Shown piece by piece: positions 29,199 through 51,235 of a stretch of 64,000 nucleotides of DNA; the stretch's first letter is position 1, and each line of letters begins with the position of its first letter. The position numbers and the translations under genes were made by a program. Below the pieces are notes generated by a model. It was not told the DNA's origin. It did no database searches and worked only from the letters and a program-made list of their open reading frames with translations. This DNA is from Niveispirillum irakense DSM 11586 (GTDB lineage: Bacteria; Pseudomonadota; Alphaproteobacteria; Azospirillales; Azospirillaceae). The DNA lies in NCBI RefSeq assembly GCF_000429645.1, contig NZ_AUCG01000022.1, forward strand, positions 248,001 to 312,000, written 5' to 3'.

Positions 29199-30149
29199 TC
29201 ACCCGCCCTCATAGGCACGTTGGATCAGAGGTTCGGCTTTGCGCAGATCATCCAGGCTGGACAAGATCACCTCCACATCGCCGGTGCCATAATGGCCGAC
29301 GGCGCGCATGTCGCGGGTGAAGCCGGGTTCCAGCACCACACTGTCGGGGTTCAGTTTCAGGTACAGAACCGTCGTACCATAGCTGGGAAACGCCTCCAGA
29401 CAGCAGAAATTGCGCAGGCGTTTGAAGGCGATGTAATGCATCAGCTCCTTCACCTGCACATCATCGCCCAGCGCCAGCAGATGGGCCCGCACCGCCTCAT
29501 ACAGATCCGCCGCGGGCGGAGACAGTTTGGCGACGCGATAGGCGATGCTCCTCACCGCCCCTGCCGCTGCCCCACCCGCCAGAGGTGCCGTTTCCGTCAA
29601 CGGGGGTGCCGCCGTAGCGGCGACGGGCAACGCGGCCTGCGTGGCATTGACCAGTTCCAGCAGCAACAGGTCATCGCCATAATGGCGATAGCGGATCAGT
29701 TCGATATTGCGGTTGATCTGCTTCACCGCATGTTCGTCATAGCGGGTGAAGTCGCCAGCGATGCACAGCAGGCGCGGGCCCGACCAGTCCACCGCCTTGG
29801 CGGCGTCCGCCCCCAGCCTTTCCATCACCAGCCACTGGAATTCCTTGCGGTGGTCCAACAGCCATTCCAGATAGAACAGGCCCTGGTTGATGACATTCTC
29901 GTTCAGCGCCCGCTTATACTCAATGATGACCGGGCAGCCATTCTCATCCAGGCCCAGCGTATCAATCCGCCCGCCATGCACCTTTCCCGTCCCATATTCC
30001 GACGCCAGGAACCGCACGCCCAGCAAGCCTTCCAGGTTCGCCTCGAACAGCACCTGCAGCGATTTCTCCACCTGCGCCGCCTTGGCGGTCAGTTCTGTGG
30101 GGCCGGCGGGGGAGAGGCGGAAGAGTTTCAGGTCAGGCATGGGGTCCAT
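29199..30149 (-). CDS. DUF5655 protein with PD-(D/E)XK nuclease-like N-terminal domain
   Basis: This 316-aa protein has an N-terminal part (about 1-170) that looks like a NucS/PD-(D/E)XK fold: FLASEYGTG, then the core GGRIDTLGLDENGCPVIIEYKR with Asp and Glu-x-Lys spaced as in nucleases. An Ala-rich linker (about 178-200) leads to a DUF5655 domain (about 205-316; VKELMHYIAFKRLRNFCCLEAF). An AGAGG site precedes the start. It is the last gene of the long type I restriction operon. DNA cleavage or binding is plausible but not shown. Confidence 0.8.
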   Translation of the reverse strand: MDPMPDLKLFRLSPAGPTELTAKAAQVEKSLQVLFEANLEGLLGVRFLASEYGTGKVHGGRIDTLGLDENGCPVIIEYKRALNENVINQGLFYLEWLLDHRKEFQWLVMERLGADAAKAVDWSGPRLLCIAGDFTRYDEHAVKQINRNIELIRYRHYGDDLLLLELVNATQAALPVAATAAPPLTETAPLAGGAAAGAVRSIAYRVAKLSPPAADLYEAVRAHLLALGDDVQVKELMHYIAFKRLRNFCCLEAFPSYGTTVLYLKLNPDSVVLEPGFTRDMRAVGHYGTGDVEVILSSLDDLRKAEPLIQRAYEGG

Positions 30150-30178
30150 AAGCCTCTAATTGCTTCTACCAAAATTAG

Positions 30179-30661
30179 TCAATCCACAGACACCCACTGC
30201 CAATCATGAGCTTCGATAGTGCCGCTTGTCCTATGACCGACATATCGACCTTCGCAGCAATCTTTTGACGGATTTATTTTGACCATGAATCCACCCATAT
30301 AACCTAATCCATCCACATCAGACCATGTTCCGACGATATAGCTTTCCCTATGCACCACCCCAACCAGACTGTATTTACTACTCCTTCCATTTTTACTAAT
30401 TGAATGCCAATACCCCACTACCCATTGACGAAATTGATAAATTTCCATATCAGAAATATTTTCGTCTGGCCAGCTTTCACTACCCCTTATTTCCCACTTT
30501 TGCGACCAATTCCCTGTAAGAGGGCCACGCCATTTATCGCGACTTCGTGCCAATACGCGAATCATCCACCCGGCGGGCACGCTGGAGAGCAACGGCTGCA
30601 CCCATGCGCCAGCAATAGCAGAACCAACGACACCAAGCAGAAAGCCGATCAGCAATTCCAT
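30179..30661 (-). CDS. Small membrane-anchored protein of unknown function
   Basis: This protein of about 160 aa has one N-terminal membrane helix (LLIGFLLGVVGSAIAGAWV) and a soluble beta-rich domain with many Trp and Gly (WVVGYWHSI, VGTWSDVDGLGYMGGFMVKI). The ATG at 30661 has a perfect AAGGAG 5 nt upstream; a GTG one codon earlier is less likely. Its base composition is more AT-rich than its neighbours, a sign of transfer. It sits between hsdS and the DUF5655 gene, same strand. A membrane-bound effector or sensor is possible. I do not recognise the family. Confidence 0.7.
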   Translation of the reverse strand: MELLIGFLLGVVGSAIAGAWVQPLLSSVPAGWMIRVLARSRDKWRGPLTGNWSQKWEIRGSESWPDENISDMEIYQFRQWVVGYWHSISKNGRSSKYSLVGVVHRESYIVGTWSDVDGLGYMGGFMVKINPSKDCCEGRYVGHRTSGTIEAHDWQWVSVD

Positions 30662-30795
30662 CACATCTCCTTGAACATTCGATCATATTTATCATCGGGT
30701 AGCACAGTCGCTGAAATTATCGGTAGGTCGCGTCCATATGGATACAGAAGCCAGGCCGTTTCAATGCAAGACAAAATTTCACTGAACTTTCCCAC
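30661..30795 (-). CDS. Possible 44-aa ORF downstream of hsdS
   Basis: A GTG-started frame overlaps the end of hsdS by 17 bp and ends TGA exactly at the start of the next gene. Its last codons (AAG GAG ATG TGA) supply that gene's ribosome-binding site. The peptide has mixed composition (FSEILSCIETAWLLYPYGRD and on). Fit between two genes is suggestive, but there is no strong start signal. It could be only the 116-bp spacer. Confidence 0.25.
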   Translation of the reverse strand: MGKFSEILSCIETAWLLYPYGRDLPIISATVLPDDKYDRMFKEM

Positions 30796-32194
30796 GCCGC
30801 GATCGCTTCGGCATTTGCACCCGCTCCGCCCGGATACGTTCCAACAGCACCGACGCCGCTTCATCCGCCGGGTCCTGGGGGACCAGTTCGCCGCGGAAGG
30901 CTTTGGCGAGGATGGATTGGGTGAGGGTGGTGTGTTGGGAGGTGGTTCTCTCGATAGTAGATTCCAGCTTCGCCATTCGTTCCATCCCATACTGAATCGC
31001 ATTCAGTAGGAGGTGTTGTTCTGCCATGGGCGGAACGGGAACAAAGACGTTACTCAAAACTTCCAGATTGATGTTCTTCTGAGCTGTTGCAGGAGCAAAA
31101 CGCTCAAGATCAGCTTTGGCAGTTCTGATGAAAAACTCCACTAGACCAACCAGAATTGTATCTTTTCTGGGGAAAAATCCGACCACGCTATCCGGAAAAC
31201 AGGCACTAAAATTCAGGATTCCTGTCTCAGCAATATTTGCAGCGATGGTGATACATAATGTCCCACGAGGCCAAAGTTTGCTTTGACGAAGCCCGAATTC
31301 GCTATATGTCTGAGTATAGGACGTCACCAACCCGCCCGATGCGGCCACTTCACCCGTCTGTAAGAACGGATAAGGGCCACCAAAAAGCTGCGGATCATTT
31401 CTGGGGCGATGCTTCGACTTCCCTCGCCCCAACTCGCCGAGGGCAGGCAGTCTCACCCAAACCCAAGAATCAGGAATTAGGGGCAGTCCTGATTCGATTC
31501 CCTCCGATGCCGTCCGCAAATCAGCGTCATTAACTTCGCCATTCAATTCATAAACTGCGGAATCCTCATTCGCCGCCCGCCAATCCGCCGTCAAATCCCC
31601 CCGGAAGGCGGCGGCGAGGAGGGATTGGCGGTAGCGGTCGAGCAGGGGGGGCAGGGCGTCCAAAGCCGCCTTGGCCCGCGCACCCTTGGCCAACAACGCC
31701 TCTATCCGCTCCACGATCCGATGTTGTTCGGGCAGCGGTGGCAGGGGGACGGTGAGCTGAGCCAAAACGCTCGCATTGACCCCTGGCTGCGCCGTCCCCT
31801 TGCTATCACTAGCGATCTGGCTCCAGTACGAAGGAGACTTCATATAAAGCGACAAATAATGGGGAGAAACCCCAGAAGTCGGACGAACACGAATTAGATA
31901 TGATGCGAATACTGAAGGTGGTGGCTCAAAGTCTATTAAATATGACTTGCCGGTAGTTGCACCGGTTCTCGCAAAGAGAATATCATTTTGCCGAACTCCA
32001 AAACGGGCAATGTTTTCGCACTCGCAATATGGAACAGCAGACCAATCAACATTACCATCTTGTATGTCGGTAATACGAATAAACTTCGGCCCCACATCAG
32101 CGGTTTTAGCTGATGCTGTATAGCCGTAATCAATTTGACTAGATAGCTCCCCCAACTCAACCTCAACCCACCCCGGCGGCAATTCCCAGTTCAT
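30779..32194 (-). CDS. hsdS: Type I restriction-modification specificity subunit
   Basis: This 471-aa protein has two target-recognition domains, each followed by a long conserved helix. The first begins LPPGWVEVELGEL and includes ILFARTGATTGK; its helix region is LPPLPEQHRIVERIEALLAKG. The second begins LPLIPDSWVWVRLPALGELG, and its helix region is PPMAEQHLLLNAI. It chooses the DNA site for HsdM/HsdR. The recognition domains are more AT-rich than the helices, as usual for exchangeable parts. I chose ATG at 32194, which overlaps the 57-aa ORF stop (ATGA); an ATG two codons upstream is possible. Confidence 0.93.
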   Translation of the reverse strand: MNWELPPGWVEVELGELSSQIDYGYTASAKTADVGPKFIRITDIQDGNVDWSAVPYCECENIARFGVRQNDILFARTGATTGKSYLIDFEPPPSVFASYLIRVRPTSGVSPHYLSLYMKSPSYWSQIASDSKGTAQPGVNASVLAQLTVPLPPLPEQHRIVERIEALLAKGARAKAALDALPPLLDRYRQSLLAAAFRGDLTADWRAANEDSAVYELNGEVNDADLRTASEGIESGLPLIPDSWVWVRLPALGELGRGKSKHRPRNDPQLFGGPYPFLQTGEVAASGGLVTSYTQTYSEFGLRQSKLWPRGTLCITIAANIAETGILNFSACFPDSVVGFFPRKDTILVGLVEFFIRTAKADLERFAPATAQKNINLEVLSNVFVPVPPMAEQHLLLNAIQYGMERMAKLESTIERTTSQHTTLTQSILAKAFRGELVPQDPADEAASVLLERIRAERVQMPKRSRRGKVQ

Positions 32195-32364
32195 GCCCAT
32201 GTCTCCTGCGCCATCACAAACGCCATCGGGCAGACTTGACCGAGTGCCAAAACATCTTCATTAACGAGGATGGAGGTTCGGCTTCGGCGTGACTTTACTC
32301 GGGTTAGCCGAGCAAGTGATGACCCTGGCATGACCTCCTTCAACTCAACGCAAATGGCACTCAT
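32191..32364 (-). CDS. 57-aa ORF between hsdM and hsdS
   Basis: This short frame (MSAICVELKEVMPGSSLARL and on, ending MAFVMAQETWA) overlaps the hsdM stop by 4 bp (ATGA) and the hsdS start by 4 bp (ATGA). It fills the whole gap between them. Such double overlap is what a real translationally coupled gene gives; a random gap would rarely stay open with both overlaps. The centre is basic (TRVKSRRSRT), followed by a hydrophobic part (ILVNEDVLALGQVCPMAFV). I do not recognise a family. It could modulate the methyltransferase complex or act as a small toxin/antitoxin partner; both are speculation. Confidence 0.6.
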   Translation of the reverse strand: MSAICVELKEVMPGSSLARLTRVKSRRSRTSILVNEDVLALGQVCPMAFVMAQETWA

Positions 32365-33809
32365 TCCCCCGCCCCCGCACTCTCCGGTTCCAGCAGGGCG
32401 GCCAGTTCTTCCATCTCTTCCAGTGCGGTGCGCAACTGGTCGATGATCTCGGCGGCCAGGGTTTCGGGTGGGGGCAGGTCTTCGCTGCCGCTGCCTTCCT
32501 CGCGCAGCCAGGTGATGTCCAGATTGTCGCCGCGTGCCGCGATCTGGTCGCGGGTGAAGGGGCGGAAGCGGGCGGTTTCGCCATCATCCACGCGCGGGGA
32601 TTGGCCATGCGGGTCGGGGCCATAGGCTTCCTCGAACGCCGCGAAATGCGCCCGTGTCAGGGGGCGGGTCTTGCCAAAGGGCGGCTGACCCGTCCGCATG
32701 TCATAAATCCAGGTGGTCTGTGTATTGCCCCGGTCGCTGCGGCCACGGGTGAAGAACAGCACATTGGTCTTCACCCCCTGGGCATAGAAAATGCCGGTGG
32801 GCAGGCGCAGGATGGTATGCAGGTCGCATTTTTCCATCAGGTCGCGGCGCACATCGCGGCCCACCCCATCCTCAAACAACACATTATCGGGCAACACCAC
32901 GGCAGCGCGCCCGCCGGGCTTCACCCCGCGATAGATATGCTGCAAGAAACAAAGCTGTTTATTGCTGGTGGGAAAGGTCAGGTCATCGCGTGTGGGCAGG
33001 CCCCCGCCCTTCTTGGTGCCAAAGGGCGGGTTGGTCAGGATCAGGTCGGCCCGTTCCAGCGCCGATCCATCTGGCGACAGGGCATCGCCCACATGCACCG
33101 GCCCTTCAATCCCATGCAGGATCAGGTTCATCAGGCCCAGACGCTGGGCATCCTGCACCAGTTCCAGCCCCTGAAAGGCGCGCACCCGCTGAAAATACTG
33201 CATGGATTCGGGCAGGGTGAACAGATCATCCGTCTGGCCCTTGATGTACCGGTCGGCGGCAATCAGGAAGCCGCCGGTGCCGGCGGCGGGGTCCTGCACC
33301 ACCTCCCCCGCCTGTGGCCGCATCAGGGCCACCATGCTGTCAATCAGGCAACGCGGGGTGAAATATTGCCCGGCCCCGGACTTCTTCTCCTCCGCGTTCT
33401 TCTGCAACAACCCTTCATACAGATCGCCCAGCCCCTCTGTGCGGGCGGAGTACCAGTCCAGCCCATCCAGACTGTCGACCAGCGTTTTCAGGTTGGTCGG
33501 GCGTTTCAGGAAGGTCTGCGCATTGGCATAAATCTCCTGCACCCGCTCACTGCCCTCCGACCCCAGGCGGATCAGCATCTGCCGGTAGAAATTAAGCTGC
33601 TCCGTCCCCGTCTGCCGCTTCAGGTCCGCCCAGCGCAGGCCGGGCGGAATGTTGGGCGCATGCTTGCCCTCCTCCGCCCCCGTCTCCTCCGCCATTTTCA
33701 GGAACAGCAGATAGGTCAGCTCTGTCACATACTGATGATAGGTGATGCCGTCATCGCGCAGGACATTGCAGAGGTTCCAGAGTTTTGCAACGATGTCATT
33801 GGTATTCAT
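32361..33809 (-). CDS. hsdM: Type I restriction-modification DNA methyltransferase subunit
   Basis: This 482-aa protein has an N-terminal HsdM helical domain (about 1-130). The N6-adenine methyltransferase domain has AdoMet motif DPAAGTGGFLI (173-183) and catalytic NPPFG (260-264). It methylates adenine in the HsdS-specified site and protects host DNA. It overlaps the upstream 115-aa gene (ATGA) and the downstream 57-aa ORF (ATGA). Length is normal. Confidence 0.95.
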   Translation of the reverse strand: MNTNDIVAKLWNLCNVLRDDGITYHQYVTELTYLLFLKMAEETGAEEGKHAPNIPPGLRWADLKRQTGTEQLNFYRQMLIRLGSEGSERVQEIYANAQTFLKRPTNLKTLVDSLDGLDWYSARTEGLGDLYEGLLQKNAEEKKSGAGQYFTPRCLIDSMVALMRPQAGEVVQDPAAGTGGFLIAADRYIKGQTDDLFTLPESMQYFQRVRAFQGLELVQDAQRLGLMNLILHGIEGPVHVGDALSPDGSALERADLILTNPPFGTKKGGGLPTRDDLTFPTSNKQLCFLQHIYRGVKPGGRAAVVLPDNVLFEDGVGRDVRRDLMEKCDLHTILRLPTGIFYAQGVKTNVLFFTRGRSDRGNTQTTWIYDMRTGQPPFGKTRPLTRAHFAAFEEAYGPDPHGQSPRVDDGETARFRPFTRDQIAARGDNLDITWLREEGSGSEDLPPPETLAAEIIDQLRTALEEMEELAALLEPESAGAGE

Positions 33810-34150
33810 TGCGCCCGTTTAATGCCGTGTGAATAATAAAATGAAGATGTATCGAAGGTTACCCGATCAATCATCACCGATCCGGATTTCATGTGACCTT
33901 CTATCGTTGCCGGGAAGACGTCACTCATCTCATCATCCGGGTACGACAAGGTCACATAGACGTTAACAAGTATTGAGAATTTCTCGCCATCCCAGATGAT
34001 TTCATCATCAAATATTTCGACCAGATCAATGACAGTGTCACCAGACAGCTCGGCCATTTCCGACCAGGCCGGGAACAAGCGCAAATCCAGGGATTCGATC
34101 TTGGCACGGATGGCCTGCCGCCGCGCCGCTGTTTGGTCGCCCGTGGTCAT
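33806..34150 (-). CDS. Unknown 115-aa protein in the type I restriction operon
   Basis: This acidic soluble protein of about 114 aa (first ATG at 34153; the second, at 34150, is better spaced from the AGGAGG site) starts with a basic helix (ARRQAIRAKIESLDLRLF). An acidic beta-rich body follows: VDLVEIFDDEIIWDGEKF, VYVTLSYPDDE, HMKSGSVMIDRVTF. It overlaps hsdM by 4 bp and lies 7 bp after the FRG gene, so it is co-translated with the restriction genes. I do not recognise the family. A regulator or accessory subunit is possible. Confidence 0.72.
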   Translation of the reverse strand: MTTGDQTAARRQAIRAKIESLDLRLFPAWSEMAELSGDTVIDLVEIFDDEIIWDGEKFSILVNVYVTLSYPDDEMSDVFPATIEGHMKSGSVMIDRVTFDTSSFYYSHGIKRAQ

Positions 34151-34160
34151 CATGCCCTCC

Positions 34161-34898
34161 TCAGTAGCTGACGTCGCCGACAGCGATGCCGCGCCGATAT
34201 TGCCAGCTCAGCGTTTCACAGAGACCGTCCAGGTCCGCCATTATATGGGAGGGGTCAATACCAAGATAGAAGAGCTTTTTGCGGAAATAAGGGACATGTT
34301 GGGGCGGAATCTCGAAGCGGTTCTCCTCCATCTTGGTGAGAGGCCAATCCTCGTCCGGTTTGCCATGTATGGTGAAAAAGCCCCGTTGCGAAACGAGGCG
34401 GGCATCGCTGGTCGACGGGACGACGAACTTCACATCCTCGACCAGAAACGGATCCGGTTCGTCTTCCGTCCGCAGGATCAGTGCCTTACCGATCTTGATA
34501 GCGTGAATGGCCGCCGCCTCCGTCAATCCAGCATCATCGTGCGACTTGACAGCAAAATAGGCTGCGACCAAGGGGTTGCTGGTCCAGTCCAGTAAGCGGG
34601 TCGGCAGGCCATGGTGCTGGGCGATAGCCAGCATTTCCCAGTCACTGGCGACGCTGATATTGCCATAGCCCCGCGCCCGCCGCTTAAACGTATCGAAAAT
34701 GCGTTTTTCATACAGGGGATTGTATTTGCCCACTGGACAGGATTGCGCCCGCCCAACCTTCGGACGAAGGGGCCATGACACGGCCCCCTGCCCCCTGAAC
34801 ATCCAGTTGGAAGTTTCACGCTTGCCAATGAAAGCCATGAAGCTGGCCCAGCAGTCCTTCTGCTCACTCATCAGTTTTGTGTTAAATTTTACAGCCAT
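34161..34898 (-). CDS. FRG domain protein
   Basis: This 245-aa protein has the FRG signature near the N-terminus (NWMFRGQGAVSWPLRPKVGR) and the matching second block AIAQHHGLPTRLLDWTSNPLVAAYFAV. FRG domains occur in phage-defence and toxin contexts and resemble ADP-ribosyltransferase-type folds, but their activity is not settled. It starts 1 bp after the hsdR stop and precedes the 115-aa gene by 7 bp, placing it inside the restriction operon between hsdR and hsdM. Confidence 0.88.
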   Translation of the reverse strand: MAVKFNTKLMSEQKDCWASFMAFIGKRETSNWMFRGQGAVSWPLRPKVGRAQSCPVGKYNPLYEKRIFDTFKRRARGYGNISVASDWEMLAIAQHHGLPTRLLDWTSNPLVAAYFAVKSHDDAGLTEAAAIHAIKIGKALILRTEDEPDPFLVEDVKFVVPSTSDARLVSQRGFFTIHGKPDEDWPLTKMEENRFEIPPQHVPYFRKKLFYLGIDPSHIMADLDGLCETLSWQYRRGIAVGDVSY

Positions 34899-34899
34899 A

Positions 34900-37800
34900 T
34901 CAGCCTGCCTGTTGCCACAAGCCGTTTACCATCCGGGAGAGAACATTCAGCAACTCGCCCCCAAACACCCTATCCAGCCGCGCAAATCCACCCCCGGTGG
35001 CCTTGAACTGCCCCGTATCCAAGCTCTCGCGGTCTACCACCACTTCTCGCTTCATTTGAAGCGCAATCCGCTCCAGCCATTGCCGTTGTACCGTTGTCCA
35101 CGCCCGTTCGGCCAGGATTGCCGCCAAGACCCGGTCCACCCGCATCTCATAGGGGATCAGCGGGTCGCCCAAGGCGGCTTGCCGGATATAGCCGATGATA
35201 CCGGCGGCGACGTCGACATGGCGGGCATCGCGGAAGGCGGCGCGCAGGTCGGCTTCCTTGAAGCCCTTTTCCTCCAGCAGTAACCGTATCTCCCGCAACT
35301 GTGCGCGGGTCAGGTCGCGCGGGCGTTGGGCGATGATGGTCAGGGCCGGGATGGCGTTGATCTGGGTCTTCAGGAAATTCTCAAACGCCGACAGGTAATC
35401 CTCCGGCCGGGTGAAGCCGGGGCCATAGCCCTGGGCCATGCCCAGATAGGTGTCTTCATGGTCCGACACGGGCAGGCGCACCGGTCCCATCTCCCCTGCC
35501 CGGTCCAGCCAATCGATCAGGGGCGTCAGGCCGGACAGCATCTGTGCCGCCTCCACCGGTGTGGCGTGGCGCAGACGATCGACCAGCGCCGTCGGCGTCA
35601 GGCCGCCGGCCAGATGGTTGAACCGTTCGGCCCGCGCCTCCTCCCCCTCATACCGGCGACGGCGACGCTGCATCTTGGCGATGATCTGGTCCAACAGGTA
35701 GCGGGCCTTCTCCGTCCGATGCTGCGCCTCGGGATCGATGCCAGGCGGCGGGCCGCTGTCGAAGCCCTCACCCTCTTCTGCCATGCCGCCCTCTGTACCG
35801 GGCAGGGGTTCTGGCGTGGTCGCGGCCATGCCCACCGTTTCGGTCAATTCCTCCAGCAACTGCCCGAACCGGATGTTCGGATTGGCCACCACCGGCTTCA
35901 CGGCGCTGACCGCCTGCATGTCGCGGTACAGACCAACGGCATCGAAAATACGAAAGGCGGTCTTGCCGATCTCCGGGCACAGGCGGGTGGCGCGGCCGAT
36001 CATCTGTTCGTACAGAATGCGGCTGGACACCTTGCGCACGAAAACCAAGTTCACAATCTCCGGCACATCGATGCCCGTGGTCAGCAGGTCCACCGTCACC
36101 ACGATGCTGGGCAGGCGTTCATTCTTGAAGGCGCGGATACGCTGTCCGGGCCGGTCCACCGCGCCGGTGATCTTCTCCACCGCCGCTTCCTCCAACCCGC
36201 CATAGCGGGCGCGCAGGGCGGTGCGGATTTCATCGACCAGGATATCGGCATGTTGGTCGGTGGCGGCGAAGACCAGGGTCTTGCCGGGAAGGGCCGGATC
36301 GACATGTTCGGCCAGCGCCTGTGCCACGGCAGCATTATAGGGCCGGGTAATGACCTGGCGGTTGAACTGCTCCACCTCGAACCCCAGATCGTCCGGCAAT
36401 TCATGGTCGGTCAGGGTGCCCGCCTCCCGGTCGAACATGCCGACCGTGTCACCGGCCTGCCAATGGATGCCGCTGTCACGCAATTGGGTCAGCACCTGTT
36501 GCGGCGGCTCATGATCCACCAGCCAGCCATCAATCACCGCTTCACGCAAACTGTAGCGGAAGACAGGGGGGCCGAAGATGTCCGTGGTGTGCAGGGCGGG
36601 CGTGGCGGTCAGGCCAATACGCACGGCATCAAAACGATCCAGGACTGCCTTATATTTGGACCGGTAATCATTCTCATTACGGAACGATAATTCCTCATCC
36701 GTCGCCTCCCGGTCCAACAGATAGCCGCGATGGCATTCATCGACGATGATGCAGTCATACTGGTCCACGGGCGGCGGGCTGCTGCCCTCGGGGGCAAACA
36801 TGATGCGCTTCACCATGGCCTGGACCGTGGCGATATGCACCTTGGTGCTGGCGTCAGGCACAGTGTCGCCGATGGCCTTCACCTCAAAAATATCGGCGAA
36901 GGGCTGCATCTGCACGATGCGGGTGTCGCGGAACGCACCTTCGGCCTGTTCGCCCAGGGCCGTCCGATCCACCAGGAACAGGATGCGGCGGAAGCGGTTG
37001 GCGGCCAGCAGCCGGTACAGCATGGCAATGCAGGTCTTGGTCTTGCCCGTGCCCGTGGCCATGGCGACCAACAGGCTGCGCCGTCCTGCCGCCAAATTGC
37101 GCTCCACCGCCTGGATGGCCCGCACCTGATAATCCCGCAGGCCGAAATTATAGGTGAAACTCTGGCGCGCCAGATCCGCCTGTGCCGCCGCCACATCCAT
37201 GGACGCAAGGTCCAGCAGTCCCTGCGGACTGTACCAGCCCTCCAAGGGACGGGCCGCATTCTCCGCCCGCCTTGCGTCGCGGAACCAGATGCCGCTGGCG
37301 GTGCGCAGTTGCGGCAGAAAGGCCCGGCCGTTGGTGGCGAACAGGAACGGGATATGATGCCCATCCCAGGGGCCGCCGGTGACCGGAACCTCCTCCCCCT
37401 GCACCCGGAAATGGCTGCTATACCGCGCGGCCTGAACCAGGGCACCGGGCACATCGGACGCCCGGCGCTTGGCCTCCACCACGGCCAGCGGCGTCAGGCC
37501 CGCGAACAGCACATAATCGGCGGGGCCGTCCGCCGTCGGCCATTCGGCAATAGCCCGGTTGGCTCCGCGCGCGGGGCGGGCGCCGGCGGCATGGGTCAGG
37601 CTGGCGGTATCCACCTCCCACCCCGCTTCCGCCAGTTGCGCGTCGATCAGCTTGCGGGTTTCAAACTCATCCAGCGACAGTTCGCGGGCCGCCGCCTCCG
37701 CTGCTTCGGCCAGGGCCGGGGTATCGGCGGCGGCAGTGGCCGCCTGCAGGGACAGCGCCTGTTCCAACGCAGCCTGCCGTCCAGCCTCCGCCTCCGCCGC

Positions 37801-38403
37801 CAAAGCCGCCAGCTGCGCGCGCGCTTCCTCCGCTACCAGGGCACGTTCCTCGGCGCTCAGCCGGGCTTGCGCGGCGGCTTCTGCTTCGGCCTGCGCCTTC
37901 TCGGCGGTACTGCGGCTGGCCGCCACCTCGGCCCGCAGCCGTTCCAGTTCCCGCTGCAAGGCGGCGGTTTCGGCGCGCGGGTCGGGTGGCGGTACAAAAG
38001 GACCGGGCTGGAACGCGCGATCACCCAGGGAGCGGTGAAACCAGATGGCCAGTTGATGCGCGATCTTCAGGTGGGCCAGCGCCTGCTGATGGTCGCCATC
38101 CAGAGCGTGAACAGCGGCATTCCCCGCCCGGCGCAACTGATGAAACAGGTCTGCAACCTGCCGGGGCAGGACGCCCCGGTCAGCCAGACGCCGCAGCCGC
38201 TCCACCTGCGGCTCTTCGGTTGTGCCCAGGATACGGGCGCGGGCGGCCAGAAGCTGCGCCATCAGTTCCCCAAACTGCCGCAGCTTCACCAGCGTCGTGG
38301 ACGGATCTTCCACGAAATTCCGCTCCGCCACCGCGCCCAGCCGCACCAACTGAGCCGAATGCACAGCCAGAAACGCGAAATTGGGGGTTTGGGGAACAGT
38401 CAA
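34900..38403 (-). CDS. hsdR: Type I restriction endonuclease/translocase subunit
   Basis: This protein of about 1167 aa is of the EcoEI-like HsdR group. The N-terminal helical DUF4145-like part (NFAFLAVHSAQLVRLGAVAERNF) leads into an Ala/Glu-rich coiled coil (about 145-235). The nuclease domain has VLFAGLTPLAVVEAKR. The SF2 motor has Walker A ATGTGKTKT (near 450), DECHRG (near 550), LTATPAL and QMIGRATR. I place the start at TTG 38403 because family members begin just before this motif; the frame is open to an ATG at 38550. It is the first gene of the minus-strand operon. Confidence 0.93.
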   Translation of the reverse strand: MTVPQTPNFAFLAVHSAQLVRLGAVAERNFVEDPSTTLVKLRQFGELMAQLLAARARILGTTEEPQVERLRRLADRGVLPRQVADLFHQLRRAGNAAVHALDGDHQQALAHLKIAHQLAIWFHRSLGDRAFQPGPFVPPPDPRAETAALQRELERLRAEVAASRSTAEKAQAEAEAAAQARLSAEERALVAEEARAQLAALAAEAEAGRQAALEQALSLQAATAAADTPALAEAAEAAARELSLDEFETRKLIDAQLAEAGWEVDTASLTHAAGARPARGANRAIAEWPTADGPADYVLFAGLTPLAVVEAKRRASDVPGALVQAARYSSHFRVQGEEVPVTGGPWDGHHIPFLFATNGRAFLPQLRTASGIWFRDARRAENAARPLEGWYSPQGLLDLASMDVAAAQADLARQSFTYNFGLRDYQVRAIQAVERNLAAGRRSLLVAMATGTGKTKTCIAMLYRLLAANRFRRILFLVDRTALGEQAEGAFRDTRIVQMQPFADIFEVKAIGDTVPDASTKVHIATVQAMVKRIMFAPEGSSPPPVDQYDCIIVDECHRGYLLDREATDEELSFRNENDYRSKYKAVLDRFDAVRIGLTATPALHTTDIFGPPVFRYSLREAVIDGWLVDHEPPQQVLTQLRDSGIHWQAGDTVGMFDREAGTLTDHELPDDLGFEVEQFNRQVITRPYNAAVAQALAEHVDPALPGKTLVFAATDQHADILVDEIRTALRARYGGLEEAAVEKITGAVDRPGQRIRAFKNERLPSIVVTVDLLTTGIDVPEIVNLVFVRKVSSRILYEQMIGRATRLCPEIGKTAFRIFDAVGLYRDMQAVSAVKPVVANPNIRFGQLLEELTETVGMAATTPEPLPGTEGGMAEEGEGFDSGPPPGIDPEAQHRTEKARYLLDQIIAKMQRRRRRYEGEEARAERFNHLAGGLTPTALVDRLRHATPVEAAQMLSGLTPLIDWLDRAGEMGPVRLPVSDHEDTYLGMAQGYGPGFTRPEDYLSAFENFLKTQINAIPALTIIAQRPRDLTRAQLREIRLLLEEKGFKEADLRAAFRDARHVDVAAGIIGYIRQAALGDPLIPYEMRVDRVLAAILAERAWTTVQRQWLERIALQMKREVVVDRESLDTGQFKATGGGFARLDRVFGGELLNVLSRMVNGLWQQAG

Positions 38404-38589: not shown

Positions 38590-40749
38590 GTGTTTTCGTG
38601 GTTAGCGTCATTCCATGTAACGGTTGGGGGTTATCAGTTTGGCTTTGTATGGATCACTGTTCTGCTTTTGTTGTTCATTTTCTTTATCTTCTATGCGCTC
38701 CCAGCAATTTGGTCGCTCGTTGACCTGTATAGATTGTCTTCGCGAATCAATGCCGCCAAGGCGACGTCGCCCCCCCTGACTAAGGGTGCAATGTCCGATG
38801 TCTTCCAGCCATTCGGCCATTTCAACCATCGCTGGAATGAATATGCCGAAACGCTGCATGAACAATTCACCAACGTCGATGGTGAAAAACGGCTGTACCG
38901 TATCCGGGCGACTGTCCCGGCAGAGGTCTATTTCAACGCCGCTACTATTATTGACGGCCGTACCCATGCGGAGTTTTTCCGGCATCTTCCCGGCATACTT
39001 ACAGGGGTGGGGATCATCGGCACGTTCATCGGACTGATCTCCGGCTTGCAGGAGTTCAACCTGAAGCTGGACGATCCGGCGATGCTGACAGCGGCGCTGG
39101 ACAAACTGATCTACAGCGTCAAGGAAGCCTTCATCGCGTCGGCCATTGCCATCATCGCGGCGATGCTGGTGACCTTGATCGAAAAGGGCCTCGTTAACTG
39201 GAACCATAATTGCCTGGATAAGCTGGTCCAGACCATTGACGGGCTGTATGAGGCGGGTGCCGGTGAGGAATATCTGGCGCAACTGGTGCGATCGTCGGAG
39301 GAAGGGGCCACCCATTCAAGGCAGTTGAAAGACAGCCTTGTCGAGGACTTGAAGCATCTGCTGACTGAGTTGACGGAACGGCAGGTACAGGCCACGCATC
39401 AGGCCAGCGCTGCCATGGCCAGCCAGATCGGCGACAGCATCGCCGGCAGCCTTCAGGCCCCGCTGGACAAGATCGCCAGTGTTGTGGAGGTGGCCAGCGG
39501 CAAGCAGGGCGACGCCGTCCATGGCATGCTTGAGAACCTGATGACGGCTTTCATGGCAAAGCTGGAAGACACAATGGGCGACCAGATGAAGGGGCTGGCC
39601 GCCATGCTGACCGAGAGCGCGGGTTCGATGCGGGAGATGCAGGCCGGCTTTGGCCGTCTGGTCAGCGAGTTGTCGCAGGCCGGCGACACTGCCAGCCGCA
39701 GCATGTCCGATCAGTTGGCCAGCATGATGGCCGAGGCAGAGGCAAGACAAACCCGCATGGCCGAAGCCCTTGACCGCGCCGTCACCTCTATGCAGGGCCA
39801 GATCAGCGGCGGACAGGAGGAAATGCAGCAGCGCCTAGGTGACGCCATCGCCGGGATCAAGGATGCCGTCGGCCAGATGATGGCCGACATGGCCGAACAG
39901 CGCCGCCATCTTGCCGCCAGCGGCGACGAAGAGGCCCAGCGCCTACGCGAAGCGATGACGTCCCTTCTGGATGAAGTGCGAAGCGCCAGCCAGCACACCG
40001 CCAACCGCTATGGCGATGAACTGTCCGCGACCCTGGCCAAGGTTCAAGGTGCCTTGGATACGACGCTGGGCAGCCTTTCCGACAGCCAGCGCGCCAATGA
40101 TGAACGCAGCCAGCAGCTTCTGGAGGCATTGGAGGCCCGGCTGGCGGTTCTGATCGACAGCAGCAAGGGGGCCGCCGACAGCCTGCGAGAGAATATCGGC
40201 CGGCTGAATCAGACCTCCATGGAAGCCATTAACGGCATGAACCGGGGGGCCGAAACCATGCGCAAGGCAGCGGAAGGTTTTGCGACCGCCGGCGACACTG
40301 TCACCGGCGCTGTGGCGAAGGGTGGCGAGCTGTTTGAGCGGGTTTCGACAGTGGCCAAGGGCCTGGAAGCAACCGCCGACACAATGCGCGACACCATCAC
40401 CGCCTATGCCCAGACGCGTGGCAGCCTGGAGGCCATGGCCGAAACCCTGCGCACCACGGTGCAGGAAGCCGATCAGCGGGCCGGTTTGAGCCGGACCCTG
40501 GTCACCGACATGGAACGGCTGGTGGCCAGATTCAGCGAAAGCCAGACCCAGGCCCGCGAGTATCTGGACGAGATCACCAGCGTCCTGGGCAAAGCCTTCG
40601 ATGATTTTGGCACCTCTATGACCAGGAGCCTGGACAGGAGCCGCAGCGAGTTCGATGTGTCCCTGTCCAAGGCCGTCGGGATGCTGGATAGCGAGATTCA
40701 GGAACTGGCGGACGTGCTGGAGAATTTTCGTGTCCGGGTGTCCAACTGA
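38590..40749 (+). CDS. zorA: Zorya defence protein ZorA (MotA-like with long coiled-coil tail)
   Basis: This 719-aa protein has a GTG start with GGAGG 6 nt upstream. Three membrane segments lie near 18-42, 133-152 (GVGIIGTFIGLISG) and 180-200 (FIASAIAIIAAMLVTLIEKG), as in MotA/ExbB/TolQ proton-channel subunits. A tail of about 480 aa, rich in Ala, Met, Glu and Gln and predicted helical, reaches into the cytoplasm. With ZorB it forms the proton-driven rotary motor of Zorya that senses phage invasion. It diverges from hsdR across a 186-bp gap. Confidence 0.93.
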   Translation: MFSWLASFHVTVGGYQFGFVWITVLLLLFIFFIFYALPAIWSLVDLYRLSSRINAAKATSPPLTKGAMSDVFQPFGHFNHRWNEYAETLHEQFTNVDGEKRLYRIRATVPAEVYFNAATIIDGRTHAEFFRHLPGILTGVGIIGTFIGLISGLQEFNLKLDDPAMLTAALDKLIYSVKEAFIASAIAIIAAMLVTLIEKGLVNWNHNCLDKLVQTIDGLYEAGAGEEYLAQLVRSSEEGATHSRQLKDSLVEDLKHLLTELTERQVQATHQASAAMASQIGDSIAGSLQAPLDKIASVVEVASGKQGDAVHGMLENLMTAFMAKLEDTMGDQMKGLAAMLTESAGSMREMQAGFGRLVSELSQAGDTASRSMSDQLASMMAEAEARQTRMAEALDRAVTSMQGQISGGQEEMQQRLGDAIAGIKDAVGQMMADMAEQRRHLAASGDEEAQRLREAMTSLLDEVRSASQHTANRYGDELSATLAKVQGALDTTLGSLSDSQRANDERSQQLLEALEARLAVLIDSSKGAADSLRENIGRLNQTSMEAINGMNRGAETMRKAAEGFATAGDTVTGAVAKGGELFERVSTVAKGLEATADTMRDTITAYAQTRGSLEAMAETLRTTVQEADQRAGLSRTLVTDMERLVARFSESQTQAREYLDEITSVLGKAFDDFGTSMTRSLDRSRSEFDVSLSKAVGMLDSEIQELADVLENFRVRVSN

Positions 40750-40764
40750 TCGGGAGGGGCGGTG

Positions 40765-41472
40765 ATGCTGGGTCGGATCGTTCTTTCCAAAAGGTCGAAG
40801 GATGAAGCCGAAAAGCCGTTCTGGATCAGCTTTTCTGACCTGATGACGGCCTTGATGGTGCTGTTCCTGGTGGTGATGGCCATTTCGCTTCTGTCGGTGA
40901 CGCAGAAACTGCGCGATGTACAGATGGAGGAGGCCGAACGGGCCGACGCCATCGACCGGATCGTCAGCTCCCTGCAGGAAGCGGCGGCCAAACATGGCGA
41001 TGTGTCGGTCACCGGCAGCCGCGACCGGGTGGTGATCGAGTTTGGCGAGGCCGCACGCTTTGCCAGCAACGACCACCGGATCGGCACGCCGGGCGCGGAA
41101 CGGCTGCGGCGGTTCGCACCGGAAATCTTGAACATGGCAGAAAGCGAGGATGGCCGCCGCTGGTTCAAGCGGGTGGTTGTGGAGGGTTTTACCGATCCGC
41201 GCGGCACCTATCTGCATAACCTGCATCTCAGCCTGATGCGGGCGGAAAGCGTGGTCTGCAACCTGTTGGCCCCCGGCGGGGCCGAACTGACCGATGCGCA
41301 GAAACAGGCGGTGCGGCGGCTGTTCCTTGTGGGTGGCTTCTCCTCCAACTCCACCCGCACCACGGACGAGGAAAGCCGCCGGGTCGAGCTGCGGCTGGAT
41401 TTCCGGACAGTGCGGGAGAGGCCGGAGGCACCGGCACTGCTGGATGTTCCCTTGGGACAATGCCGGATCTGA
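40765..41472 (+). CDS. zorB: Zorya defence protein ZorB (MotB-like stator with OmpA domain)
   Basis: This 235-aa protein has a short cytoplasmic N-terminus and one membrane helix (SFSDLMTALMVLFLVVMAI) with the proton-carrying Asp (D25). An OmpA/MotB peptidoglycan-binding domain follows (about 90-225; VVVEGFTDPRGTY, LSLMRAESVVCNLL). The ATG at 40765 follows GGAGGGG; a GTG directly before it is less likely. It lies 15 bp after zorA and 4 bp before zorC. It anchors the ZorA motor to the cell wall. Confidence 0.93.
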   Translation: MLGRIVLSKRSKDEAEKPFWISFSDLMTALMVLFLVVMAISLLSVTQKLRDVQMEEAERADAIDRIVSSLQEAAAKHGDVSVTGSRDRVVIEFGEAARFASNDHRIGTPGAERLRRFAPEILNMAESEDGRRWFKRVVVEGFTDPRGTYLHNLHLSLMRAESVVCNLLAPGGAELTDAQKQAVRRLFLVGGFSSNSTRTTDEESRRVELRLDFRTVRERPEAPALLDVPLGQCRI

Positions 41473-41476
41473 CGCC

Positions 41477-43108
41477 ATGACCATCGCCGCGTTGAAGCGC
41501 CATCTGGAACAATCGCTGGCCCGATTACAGCAGAACCCGCCCCGCCTGGGGCGGCCCGACCAAATGGCGGCTGTTGCTGAACGGCTGCTGCGCGGACAAG
41601 CGTCGGATCAGCAGCAGCGGGCCAGGGCGAACAAGGTGCTGCAGGCCCTGACGGCCTTTCTGAGCCACGGGACGGTTGCGGGCACGCTGCGGCATCTATG
41701 CTGGGGGCTGACGGAGCCGCTGCCGACAGGGGCGCTGCTGACGCGACCACAATGCAAGGCCCTGCTGACCGAGATAGAGCGAGCGCTGGCCGGCGGCAGC
41801 CTGACGGCCAGCGCTTGGCGCGGACTGTTGCAAGGCTATTTCACGGCGGACCCGGCCACCATTGATGGGGCCGGGCGGGAAAACTGGCTGGCACTACGCG
41901 CCTTTCTGGCCCGCAGCCTGCCGGTGCTTCAACAGCGGATGAAGGCCATGCCGGTCTGGCTGGCGACGATCCTGGATCATGCGGCGGTACTGTCAGACAA
42001 TCCCTGTGCGGGTTATGCGGCGGCATTGCTGTCGGGAGACCGGTCCGATCTTGAGCGGCTGCGGGACGATCTCGGCATCCCGCCGCAAAGCTGGTTCTGG
42101 CGGGAAACGGTCCTGGCGCAGGTCCGCGCGGCCTGCGCCATGGCGGATGGCGATTTCCGCGCCAACCTGTCAACCGTCCTCACAGCGCTGAAGGATTATC
42201 CGTTGCTGGTCAATGAGGGGCTGACTTTGCTGCTACCCCGCTATCACTTAGCGGCGGATAGCCGGCATGACGGTCTGTGCGCGTTGGCAGTGGCGCATTG
42301 GGGGAGCCCCAATATCTTCGCCCAGGCGAAATGGGCGCAAGTGTCTCCCGATGTGAAAAAGATGGTGCAGGTCTGGTTGGCCTTCCAGGACCTGCAAACC
42401 TTTTTTGAGATTTTGCAGGCCGACAAGACCGTCGATACAAGACGGTTTGAGTTCTGGCTGCGCTATCACCGGCAAATGGATTACGTGCGCATCGCCCTGG
42501 GCGCACAGGCCTGGCACTCCAATGATCCCGACCTGCGCGAATTGCGAAAAAAGGGCCGGGACCGCGTCTGTCGCCTGGAAGGGGGCCCTGGCAATCTGAA
42601 CGCCATCATCATGAAGATCGGTGACTTTCTGCTGGTGGAATTCAGCCATACCGGCAATGCGGCCTATGGGTATCCGCATTTTTCACCTCCCTTTCCACTC
42701 GACCAGGAGAGCGTTCGGTTGTTCAACTTGAAGAGTGTGGCGAAATCTGTTTTTCAAGAATCCCACAATGGATCATGGGAGGATAAGTTTGACCGTATTC
42801 TTTCCACCGAGTTGAAGATCCATGCGGACAGCCGGCAACGGCCCATGCCGAGCCCACTACGCGCGCCATTACCGCCCCCGCCCTTTGTCTACCAGCAGCC
42901 AGCACTGACGCCCACGCCTGCCAAGCCAGTATTTGACATGGTCTGGCTGCGGGAAGAGTGCCGACGAAGGTCAATTGCGGTGATTGATAACCGGGATAAG
43001 AAGGGCGCGCTCTGGGTTCGGCACAAGGAACAATCCGATGCGTTTGGTCGTGACCTTGCCGCCCAAGGTTTCAGATTTGTACCCGGTAATGGCTGGTGGC
43101 TGAAATGA
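41477..43108 (+). CDS. zorC: Zorya defence protein ZorC (EH signature domain)
   Basis: This 543-aa helical protein starts MTIAALKRHLEQSLARLQ. Near 345-400 it carries the EH-signature region with WLRYHRQMDYVRIALG and KKGRDRVCRLEGG followed by FLLVEFSHTGNAAYGY. The last 60 residues form a separate small domain (DMVWLREECRRRSI, RFVPGNGWWLK). ZorC marks type I Zorya and binds DNA in the cytoplasm as an effector partner of ZorD. The ATG at 41477 lies 4 bp after zorB; its stop overlaps zorD (ATGA). Confidence 0.92.
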   Translation: MTIAALKRHLEQSLARLQQNPPRLGRPDQMAAVAERLLRGQASDQQQRARANKVLQALTAFLSHGTVAGTLRHLCWGLTEPLPTGALLTRPQCKALLTEIERALAGGSLTASAWRGLLQGYFTADPATIDGAGRENWLALRAFLARSLPVLQQRMKAMPVWLATILDHAAVLSDNPCAGYAAALLSGDRSDLERLRDDLGIPPQSWFWRETVLAQVRAACAMADGDFRANLSTVLTALKDYPLLVNEGLTLLLPRYHLAADSRHDGLCALAVAHWGSPNIFAQAKWAQVSPDVKKMVQVWLAFQDLQTFFEILQADKTVDTRRFEFWLRYHRQMDYVRIALGAQAWHSNDPDLRELRKKGRDRVCRLEGGPGNLNAIIMKIGDFLLVEFSHTGNAAYGYPHFSPPFPLDQESVRLFNLKSVAKSVFQESHNGSWEDKFDRILSTELKIHADSRQRPMPSPLRAPLPPPPFVYQQPALTPTPAKPVFDMVWLREECRRRSIAVIDNRDKKGALWVRHKEQSDAFGRDLAAQGFRFVPGNGWWLK

Positions 43109-46100
43109 GCCTGTTTGACCGCTGGCGTGGGCGGCGCCCCTCCCAACCGCCCACCGCCTCCCTGATCCGGACATTTGAAGAGGCCGGCATATGTTTCCGC
43201 CCCACCGGTGCCCTGTCGGCTCAGGACGCCATCGACTGGCTGGCCAATCCGGCCCCGTTCGATGATTGGGAACTTGCCTGCTATCTGGCGCAACTGCATC
43301 AGGAAGGCTGGGGCCCAGACCTGGATGATGCGTTCATCCTGCCCTGGGATCAGCTCTACACATTATGTGAGCAGGAAGAACACAGGGACAGTATCGGCCT
43401 TCTCCGTCTGCCACCCGCCTGCCCTTATACCGCCAGCCTGGACGCAACGGGCAGCTTCACCGACATCAGCTTCGCCATCCATCTGAGCTGGCTCGACCCG
43501 CAGGCACGGGTGATGACAGGGGTGACCCGCATCGGCGGCATCATGCGGCAGGCCGATGGCGACCGGCTTTTGCCGCCATCCGCTTGGATGCTGGCCGAGG
43601 AGGTCAGGCAGTTTGCCCGGCGACAGGACAGGTCAGCACGCGCCAACCGGCAGGCCTGGGCCCATCTGCGCGCCCTGGCCGTGAAGGCCGGGGCCAGGAT
43701 GGATGACTTCCTGCGCCGTTCAGTGGTCATCAGCCTGGATAAGCTGGACCTGAATATGAATCTGGTGTCGGTAGAAGGTACGCCCGTTGTGGAATTACGC
43801 CCCGGCGCACCCGATATCCCCATGGCCCCCTGGCTGAATATCTTTGATAAGTACACCCAAGTCCAGGACCAGTATGACCTGGTCCTGGATGACGGTACGG
43901 TCATGCGCATCATTCCGGACGAGCCCGTAAAACAGGTGCTGCGCGAAATCCGCGACATGCCGGGCCGCCGGGTCGCGGGCCGCCGTGCTAATACCTTTCT
44001 GCGCAACCCCTACGCCGTCCTCGGCCCGGCTATGGAGAAGGTCGTGGCACCCGCGCGGTTTGAGGCACTACGCCGCGCGGCGGGTATCCATTTCAACAGC
44101 TTCAGTATTCACCCGCATCGCGATAAGGATGGCCGGGTAACGCAGGTCGATATCCAGATTTCGCCCGATGATGAAGCGGCCCCACCGATACCGCCCCTTG
44201 TGCTGACTGGCAAGCCAGACGTCGCACGCTTTGCCAATCGGTTGGCGCAGGCCCATAGTCGGGGCGATCCTTGCCTGAACTTCCAAGACCAGGAACTTGA
44301 CCTGCGCGGCGACGTCGATCAACAACTGGCAACGCTGTCCGCCCTGATCGCCGACCGCTGGTCATCTCGCCAGCCAGTGCCCAGCCTGGCGGAGATCATG
44401 GATCTTTCCCGTTATTCGGCGCGCATCACCGGCTTTGACATCTATCGCCCCGTCTATTCCCCCTATATCCAGAAAACGGAGAAGGGAGAGAGCTGGTTGC
44501 CGGACAGCATCCAACCCGTGATCGCCTGCCACCCGCCCGGTGCCGACGCGCCAGTGCATTTCACGATGGAGACCGCACAGCTGGACGAAATGTCCCGCAG
44601 GGTGCAGGACGCGCAAGCCAGTGGACAGGGCATGATACAGATGGAGGGCTGGCCGGGACCGGTATCCGTGCCAGAGGCATTGGGCATCCTCAAGGCCTAT
44701 CAGCCGTTGCTGACGCCCTCACAAGCTCCCCTGCCCCTTGAAAGCTTCGGCAGTGGCATGGCCGAGGAGATGGCCACCTTTGACCATGGACCGGCGACGG
44801 GAGAGATCGGGCAGGAACCCGGACCGCCGATCCAACTGACCATTGCCGAGAATATTGAGCGGGACGATTACGCAGAGAAGCGCGGAGAACTTCTGGCTTT
44901 TGATGAAGGGACCGCCCCGTCCTTGCCCAAGGCCCTGGCCTCGCATGTGCGCCTGTTGCCGCATCAGATCAGCGGGGTGGCCTGGCTGCAGAACCTGTGG
45001 CGTCACCCGGCCCATGCCCGCGGGTGTGTGTTCGCCGACGATATGGGCCTGGGCAAAACGCTGCAGTTACTGACCTTCATCCATTGGTATCTTGAAAATG
45101 CCCCGGAAGCGGCACCCGTTCTGGTAGTGGCCCCTGTCAGCCTTCTGGAGAATTGGCAGAACGAAATCCGCAAATTCTTTACGGCGGGCGCGGCACGAAC
45201 GCTGACCCTATACGGCAAGGATCTGGACAGGGTGCGGCTCCCAGCCAGCGCCTTGACGGAGGAGTATCGGGCCGCCGGTGTTGGAAAGCTGTTGAGCGAC
45301 GGGTGGCGGGGTGCCGCGCAGATCGTGCTGACCACCTATGAAACCCTGCGCGACCAGGAATTGTCCCTGGCCCGTGAACGCTGGGGCATCATGGTCTGCG
45401 ACGAGGCGCAGAAGATCAAAACGCCCAACGCGCTGGTCACACGCGCCGCCAAGAAACAGAATGTCCGCTTCCGCATCGCTTGTACCGGCACGCCGGTTGA
45501 AAATTCGTTGACCGACCTCTGGTGTCTGTTTGACTTCATTCAGCCGGGATTGCTGCCCCCGCTGAATGCGTTCGCCAGCACCTATGTGCGGCCGATCGAG
45601 GCCAAGACGGATGAACAGCGCACCAAAGTGGAGGCGTTGCGCGCCCTGGTCACACCGCAGATATTGCGGCGGACCAAGGCCGATGTCGCCCAGTTACCCC
45701 GCAAGCACCAGGAAACCTGCGAACTCCCCATATCGCCCCGGCAGCGGCACCTCTATGGTCAGGCCGTGAACAATCTGGCCAGCAGACGCGACGCGCAGGA
45801 GGCCGGAAAGGGTGGGAATGTCGGCAACCTGATCCTGACGCTGCTGCATGATATCAGGATGATCTGCGCCCACCCACACCATACCAAGTTCACCGACCAG
45901 GGGGAAAAGGCCCTGGGACCCGAGCGGGTAGACTCACCAAAGCTGGATTGGTTGCACCGCTATCTTGAACAGGTTCACGCCAAAGGCGAGAAGGCCATTG
46001 TCTTCACCGAATTCCGCGACATTCAACGCCTGCTGCAACGAACCCTGTCACGACAATTCGGTCTGCCTGTTCAGGTGATCAATGGTGACAACAAGGCGCA

Positions 46101-51219: not shown

Positions 51220-51235
51220 TCAACGGGGATTGAAC

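What the first reader, a model, noticed from the sequence alone, without database searches (positions are those of the whole stretch)
29199..38403. Expanded type I restriction operon with five extra genes
Reading order is hsdR, FRG gene, 115-aa gene, hsdM, 57-aa ORF, hsdS, small membrane protein, DUF5655/PD-(D/E)XK gene. The core from hsdR to hsdS is joined by overlaps or gaps of 1-7 bp, and the last two genes follow within 30 bp of each other. A plain type I system needs only R, M and S. The FRG, membrane and second nuclease-like genes suggest a built-in backup or abortive response triggered when restriction fails. This gene set is not one I know as a described system.
Basis: partly seen in the sequence, partly recalled or inferred. 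Interest (0 to 1): 0.75.

Follow-up and report, generated by a model that had tools for sequence, protein, structure and literature searches.

The report
Restriction operon carrying embedded toxin-like gene pair
A bacterial DNA-restriction operon holds, between two of its core genes, a portable pair of genes that looks like an ADP-ribosylating toxin-like effector with a small partner; carrying extra defences inside such operons is a known habit, but I found no description of this pair.

Summary
The operon is real: hsdR, FRG, a 115-aa gene, hsdM, a 57-aa ORF and hsdS lie on the minus strand with 1-10 bp gaps or overlaps. Extra genes inside type I operons are a known kind. In 80 HsdM relatives the hsdR-hsdM gap exceeds 200 bp in 42 of 73 scored, and the cargo changes (Fic, PIN, HipA, Abi). 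TgvAB and DarTG2 inside type I operons are in print.

New here is the cassette. FRG's model resembles ADP-ribosyltransferase (ART) folds, weakly by score. The 115-aa protein (p115) has three relatives, each directly downstream of an FRG gene, with no hsd gene seen in the stretches fetched. Its model is NTF2-like rather than nuclease-like.

The other extras are weaker. The 57-aa ORF sits where hsdS usually starts and has no homologue. The membrane gene is 114 bp past hsdS, with no relative found. The last gene is PADLOC candidate PDC-S18, found downstream of hsdS in 7 of 80 relatives.

Best reading: layered defence, an FRG enzyme plus partner inside a restriction operon. Activity is untested.

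The parts
34900..38403 (-). hsdR, type I restriction subunit (1167 aa, TTG start), N-terminal DUF4145 region
   Evidence: Pfam and PADLOC; start fits relatives' N-termini
34161..34898 (-). FRG gene (245 aa), ART-like protein, PADLOC PDC-S15; first half of the embedded cassette
   Evidence: PF08867 E 9e-27; PDLC04938 E 2e-69; AF2 model mean pLDDT 90.7; Foldseek ranks 1-17 bear titles of ART toxins or toxin complexes, none significant alone
33806..34153 (-). p115 (115 aa), NTF2-like small partner of FRG, distant PF18166 relative; second half of the cassette
   Evidence: relatives directly downstream of FRG in L226, L133, L129; sub-threshold PF18166 match, relative L133 above cut-off; model
32361..33809 (-). 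hsdM, type I methyltransferase (482 aa)
32191..32364 (-). 57-aa ORF, probably a displaced hsdS start (about 160 bp extra), not a gene of its own
   Evidence: no family match, no homologue in 96 HsdM-relative stretches, single-copy in own genome, no plasmid match, hsdS of relatives often starts at this ATGA
30779..32200 (-). hsdS, specificity subunit (473 aa)
   Evidence: Methylase_S, 2 stretches
30179..30664 (-). 161-aa protein with hydrophobic N-terminus (judged by eye), no relative found
   Evidence: no Pfam or PADLOC match; no relative
29199..30149 (-). 316-aa DUF5655 protein, PADLOC PDC-S18
   Evidence: homologues downstream of hsdS in 7 of 80 relatives
38590..46503 (+). divergent neighbour, not part of the operon: type I Zorya genes (zorA 38590-40749, zorB 40762-41472, zorC about 41465-43108, zorD 43096-46503)
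   Evidence: PADLOC ZorA1, ZorB1, ZorC1, ZorD1

Best explanation
A type I restriction-modification operon (hsdR, hsdM, hsdS) that carries an embedded two-gene defence cassette, FRG + p115, between hsdR and hsdM. HsdMS would methylate and HsdR cut unmodified foreign DNA. FRG, a protein of the ADP-ribosyltransferase superfamily, most likely acts as a second layer against phages that escape restriction, by consuming NAD+, ADP-ribosylating a target or making an ADP-ribose signal. p115, a small NTF2-like protein, most likely binds FRG and restrains or triggers it. Close spacing keeps the layers expressed and inherited together. Shown: gene content and order, pairing of p115 with FRG elsewhere, turnover of cargo in this slot. 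Supported but weak: ART-like fold, NTF2-like fold. Inferred: that the R-M core is active, FRG's enzymatic activity, p115's role, trigger, single transcript, benefit against phage.
For: Core families intact. Gap of 1 bp at one edge of the cassette and an ATGA overlap at the other. Slot survey of 80 HsdM relatives (2 dropped, no separate hsdM call): R-M gap over 200 bp in 42 of 73, 60 bp or less in 24 of 73; M-S gap over 200 bp in 14 of 72. Cargo of the R-M slot, 52 proteins: Fic 8, PIN 5, AAA 4, HipA 1, Abi_2 1, Uma2 1; by PADLOC SoFic 8, AbiLi 4. FRG-p115 pairs with no hsd gene seen in L226, L133, L129. FRG model pLDDT 90.7; Foldseek ranks 1-17 ART toxins or their complexes by title. PMC9503650 places Frg in the ART superfamily and calls it a potential antiviral effector (passages). 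Precedents in print: DarTG2 and TgvAB inside type I operons. Neighbours include Zorya and type III genes.
Against: No activity shown. FRG fold matches are weak one by one: best E 0.096, TMq 0.23-0.31, rmsd 6-13 for ranks 1-17; for the toxin-immunity complexes I did not check which chain is the toxin. The FRG profile found no real match in the PDB. The presumed third catalytic position is Gln171, not Glu (invariant in A8; the assignment is mine). FRG was not found in any of 96 HsdM-relative stretches, so this placement is seen once. Only four p115-family proteins are known here, one remote (L129); the p115 model rests on two sequences and its matches have TMq at most 0.51 among the 50 listed. 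In the slot survey 9 of the 42 wide R-M gaps also hold an opposite-strand ORF of 120 aa or more, so some are not embedded operon cargo.
Confidence: 0.55

Rival explanations
1. FRG-p115 is a toxin-antitoxin (addiction) pair that stabilises the operon: FRG is a toxin constitutively neutralised by the NTF2-like p115, and its benefit is maintenance of the mobile island rather than phage defence.
For: The R-M slot often holds toxin-type genes: Fic in 8 of 52 cargo proteins, PIN in 5, HipA 1, Phd/YefM antitoxin 1. ParT and MbcT, from toxin-antitoxin complexes, are among the weak Foldseek matches. DarTG2, a toxin-antitoxin system, sits in a type I operon (passages). NTF2-fold immunity proteins of toxins exist (recalled).
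Against: DarTG2, the nearest precedent, is described as giving phage defence. FRG is followed by a GmrSD_N-type gene in 14 of 131 FRG stretches, which fits an enzyme with exchangeable partners better than a fixed toxin-antitoxin pair.
Confidence: 0.25
2. FRG and p115 are accessory subunits or regulators of the HsdRMS enzyme itself (for example control of restriction or its timing).
For: Tight spacing between hsdR and hsdM.
Against: The pair occurs with no hsd gene seen nearby in L226, L133 and L129, and neither gene was found in 96 HsdM-relative stretches.
Confidence: 0.07
3. Passenger genes: recent or decaying insertions with no function in this operon.
For: FRG and p115 have lower GC3 (0.68, 0.59) than hsdR and hsdM (0.79, 0.78), though hsdS is lower still (0.54); the placement is seen once.
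Against: Frames open, FRG motif residues kept, close spacing kept on both sides.
Confidence: 0.1

Closest known systems
DarTG2 embedded in a type I operon (RRDM island, PMC12255303; passages seen)
   Same: A toxin-antitoxin pair of ART type (ART nature of DarT recalled) inside a type I restriction operon
   Different: There between hsdS and hsdR with the repressor RptR; DarG is a macrodomain protein (recalled). Here between hsdR and hsdM; FRG is another clade and p115 models as NTF2-like.
TgvAB embedded in a type I operon (PMC11411939; passages seen)
   Same: Two genes inside a type I operon, both needed for protection, which did not depend on HsdR's activity
   Different: TgvAB is a GmrSD-like type IV restriction system; none of the eight window proteins has a GmrSD match
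Guilt-by-embedding (Payne et al. 2024, bioRxiv 10.1101/2024.01.29.577857; seen only as cited, not read) and PADLOC PDC-S15 / PDC-S18
   Same: FRG and the 316-aa protein match the PDC-S15 and PDC-S18 models
   Different: I take the S to mean single-gene candidate (recalled); p115 matches no PADLOC model
Frg clade of the ART superfamily (PMC9503650; passages seen)
   Same: Same domain; named as potential antiviral effector, perhaps NADase, and also listed among signal-generating enzymes
   Different: The three passages shown do not mention a p115-like partner or this placement
PF18166 pP_pnuc_2 (predicted pPIWI-associating nuclease)
   Same: The L133 relative of p115 passes the Pfam cut-off (37.1 against 25)
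   Different: Window p115 (19.7) and the L226 relative (15.5) are below it, and the p115 model is NTF2-like, so the nuclease label is doubtful

Membership tests
Type I restriction-modification system | HsdR with helicase motor and nuclease N-domain, HsdM N6-methylase, HsdS with two target-recognition stretches | tested here: met
   (ResIII, HSDR_N, EcoEI_R_C; N6_Mtase, HsdM_N; Methylase_S with 2 stretches)
Type I restriction-modification system | active methylation and restriction | not testable with these tools
   needs methylome and restriction assay
Embedded defence cassette | non-core genes inside the operon, same strand, in a slot that varies among relatives | tested here: met
Embedded defence cassette | cassette also exists outside such an operon | tested here: met
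   FRG-p115 in L226, L133, L129 with no hsd gene seen in the stretches held
Embedded defence cassette | protects against phage by itself | not testable with these tools
   no phage assay
FRG (PF08867) / PDC-S15 | profile match above cut-off, FRG and HHGxPTRLLDW motifs | tested here: met
   94.2 bits against cut-off 25; motifs kept
ART superfamily | ART fold | tested here: inconclusive
   ranks 1-17 are ART toxins or complexes by title but best E 0.096; literature places Frg there (passages)
ART superfamily | NAD+ cleavage or ADP-ribosylation | not testable with these tools
   biochemistry needed
DarTG toxin-antitoxin | macrodomain antitoxin (recalled definition) | tested here: not met
   p115 has no macrodomain match and an NTF2-like model
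PF18166 pP_pnuc_2 | profile match above 25 bits | tested here: not met
   window p115 19.7 bits; L133 relative 37.1, L226 relative 15.5
PF18166 pP_pnuc_2 | nuclease fold | tested here: inconclusive
   model matches NTF2-like proteins, best E 2.3e-3, none below 1e-3
GmrSD-like embedded system (TgvAB) | GmrSD (DUF262) domain | tested here: not met
   no such match in any of the eight proteins

The most novel reading that the evidence does not exclude
FRG + p115 is an undescribed two-gene immune system in which an NTF2-like protein holds an ART-type enzyme in check and, when embedded here, is tuned to the restriction operon so that phage anti-restriction releases FRG (a guard of the restriction enzyme).
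Probability: 0.12. Interest if true: 0.75.

Novelty: new variant of a known kind. Interest (0 to 1): 0.42.

Why it matters
If true, it adds a portable FRG + NTF2-like pair to the effectors that ride inside restriction operons, gives the PDC-S15 candidate a partner to test, and fits the view that the hsdR-hsdM gap of this type I clade is a loading site for toxin-like defences (gap over 200 bp in 42 of 73 relatives). FRG genes seem to pair with different partners (p115 here, a GmrSD_N-type gene in 14 of 131 stretches), so it becomes testable whether one ART-type enzyme is wired to different sensors.

Tried and rejected
Conserved five-gene system: rejected; no FRG, p115, p57 or p161 relative in 96 HsdM-relative stretches, some of which are short or cut.

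57-aa ORF as a gene: rejected for lack of homologues. Of 72 relatives with hsdM and hsdS scored, hsdS overlaps the hsdM stop by exactly 4 bp in 36, and a xPxxW motif lies within the first 20 residues in 50, both in 29. In the window the ATGA start at the hsdM stop reads the 57-aa frame instead, and LPPGW comes about 160 bp later. The region is single-copy in the genome and has no plasmid match.

p115 as nuclease: not accepted, though not excluded.

p115 searches that found nothing: window p115 in 288 other class genomes, plasmids, viral contigs, genome contigs; the L133 and L226 relatives in plasmids, the L133 relative in phages. These say little about rarity: single-sequence searches miss relatives at 27% identity, and G169, which holds such a relative, has a handle given out, so it was probably searched and missed there. 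PF18166 rang in 0 of 329 genomes, own genome included, so that search says nothing. A 4-row p115 profile in 19 FRG-bearing genomes hit the window and G169 only; in 137 class genomes it hit the window and one marginal 39-residue match, E 0.006, in a longer ORF, taken as chance. A two-row scan of viral contigs found only the contig already known, 1 of 238 candidate stretches.

FRG and p115 profiles against PDB sequences: no real match.

Papers: 'FRG domain' with 'phage defense' 0 papers; 'FRG domain' with embedding and type I terms 0; 'FRG domain' 8 listed, of which only PMC9503650 concerns antiviral systems by title or abstract; FRG/DUF262/ART combination 8 listed. The others were seen as listings only. 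bioRxiv is not held. PMC3702460 passages: no occurrence of FRG.

Full report
1. Observation. One search shows the eight ORFs on the minus strand at the stated place. From hsdR to hsdS the spacings are 1, 7, -4, -4 and -10 bp; the 161-aa gene starts 114 bp after hsdS and the 316-aa gene 29 bp after that. Pfam and PADLOC confirm HsdR, HsdM, HsdS, FRG and DUF5655. The hsdR start at 38403 fits N-termini of relatives. The promoter and terminator scan showed no excess over shuffles (4 against mean 3.4; 8 against mean 8.4), so a single transcript is inferred from spacing only.

2. Setting. Divergent from hsdR lie type I Zorya genes, then type III mod and res genes, a PLD-domain protein, a phage integrase and a Mutator-type transposase fragment. 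On the left is a PDDEXK_7 gene. It looks like a defence island.

3. The slot. Two (L051, L092) gave no separate hsdM call and were dropped. Of the other 78, R and M could be scored in 73, M and S in 72, all three in 68. The R-M gap was 60 bp or less in 24 of 73 and over 200 bp in 42 of 73, 36 of these with a same-strand ORF of 60 aa or more. Nine of the 42 also hold an opposite-strand ORF of 120 aa or more, so not every wide gap is operon cargo. The M-S gap was 60 bp or less in 58 of 72 and over 200 bp in 14. Nineteen of 68 were tight in both gaps and ten wide in both. ORFs were called by a simple script; small ones may be spurious, and related strains are not independent events. Cargo families at E 0.001: R-M slot, the 51 listed ORFs plus one from L004: Fic 8, PIN 5, AAA 4, RloB 2, glycosyltransferase 2, HipA 1, Abi_2 1, Uma2 1 of 52. 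M-S slot, the 19 listed plus one each from L004, L041 and L043: DUF559 3, YhcG 2, Uma2 1, HepT 1, PIN 1, Zeta 1 of 22. Downstream of hsdS, 58 of 82 listed plus L044 and L045: PtuA-type ATPase models match 9 of 60. Neither FRG nor p115 was found in 96 HsdM-relative stretches. So the window is one loading of a variable slot.

4. The cassette. FRG homologues are common: 30 of 398 phylum genomes at E 1e-8 and, with the PDC-S15 model, 13 of 337 class genomes at E 1e-25, own genome included in both; 30 plasmids at E 1e-10. hsd-like genes lie in 7 of 131 FRG-bearing stretches; at least 7 of the 131 repeat a locus already counted (six genomes plus G614), and only window- and plasmid-derived queries were used. 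p115 looked unique until FRG neighbours were read. L226 has FRG (37% identity) and, 27 bp on, a 27% p115 relative. The viral contig L133 has FRG (39%) and, 9 bp on, a 37% relative. Plasmid L129 has a remote relative as the end of a 193-aa protein 80 bp after FRG (E 5e-6 with a profile of the other three). Near the L226 pair are obg and a peptidase gene, near the L133 pair queC; no hsd gene was seen in these stretches of 15.5, 6.7 and 14.6 kb. All four p115 proteins follow an FRG gene, but three were found by looking beside FRG, so this is suggestive, not a fair test. Of the fairer tests, a viral-contig scan with two p115 sequences found only L133's contig again, and 137 class genomes gave no FRG-free case except one marginal short match.

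5. Structures. FRG: mean pLDDT 90.7, pTM 0.87 with 52 sequences. Foldseek ranks 1-17 are ART toxins or toxin complexes by title and my knowledge of them, E 0.096 to 1.3, TMq 0.23-0.31, rmsd 6-13: consistent as a group, weak singly. R35 lies in a predicted strand, as the arginine of ART enzymes does (recalled), and is at least 90% conserved; D104, W105 and Q171 are invariant in 52 sequences. PMC9503650 independently calls Frg an ART-superfamily domain that may be a NADase, and also lists it among signal-generating enzymes (passages). p115: mean pLDDT 84.2 with two sequences; the best of 1266 matches are NTF2-like or similar folds (PhzA/B, CaMKII hub, ARC6), best E 2.3e-3, TMq at most 0.51 among the 50 listed. 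The nuclease label of PF18166 is therefore not relied on.

6. The other extras. p57: see Tried and rejected. p161: no relative in 72,556 plasmid records, 189 other class genomes or the 96 stretches. The PDC-S18 protein has homologues in 7 of 80 loci (L063, L076, L082, L096, L104, L106, L107), same strand as hsdS, 1.3-2.6 kb downstream of it with other ORFs between, and in L007 one gene away from hsdM. It is recurrent near this operon type, not tightly part of it.

7. Reading. A known kind (defence embedded in a type I operon) with a pair, FRG + NTF2-like protein, for which I found no description. Mechanism beyond composition is inferred: an ART-type enzyme with a controlling partner, acting as a second layer. 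Rivals and refuting results are in their sections.

Noticed in passing
L229, L234, L164, L154, L024, L181, L175, L026, L167, L170, L029, L032, L196, L230: FRG genes directly followed (overlap of up to about 46 bp, to 3 bp apart) by a gene of about 350-380 aa related to the L229 protein, which has a GmrSD_N (DUF262) domain: 14 of 131 FRG stretches (only the L229 protein was scanned against Pfam). Looks like a recurrent FRG + GmrSD_N two-gene system.
   Followed up: partly
window 38590-46503; L101, L109: Type I Zorya genes beside the type I restriction operon; zorA, zorB and zorC relatives also follow hsdS in L101, and a zorA-like ORF lies downstream in L109, of 80 relatives.
   Followed up: no
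window 46997-52582, 52908-54143: Type III mod and res genes after Zorya, then a PLD-domain protein and a phage integrase.
   Followed up: no
window 32191-32364: hsdS start seems displaced by about 160 bp of single-copy sequence that keeps the ATGA overlap with hsdM.
   Followed up: partly
window 28549-29196: PDDEXK_7 nuclease-like gene of 215 aa on the plus strand, perhaps a remnant.
   Followed up: no
window 37777-38388: HsdR residues 6-209 match PADLOC PDC-M16A, with DUF4145 inside.
   Followed up: no
L133: FRG-p115 pair on a viral contig beside queC and a deoxyribosyltransferase-like gene, with a large ORF on the other strand.
   Followed up: no
L130, L131: Rhizobium plasmid FRG proteins (367 and 366 aa) near S8 peptidase genes, perhaps protease-linked FRG systems.
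   Followed up: no
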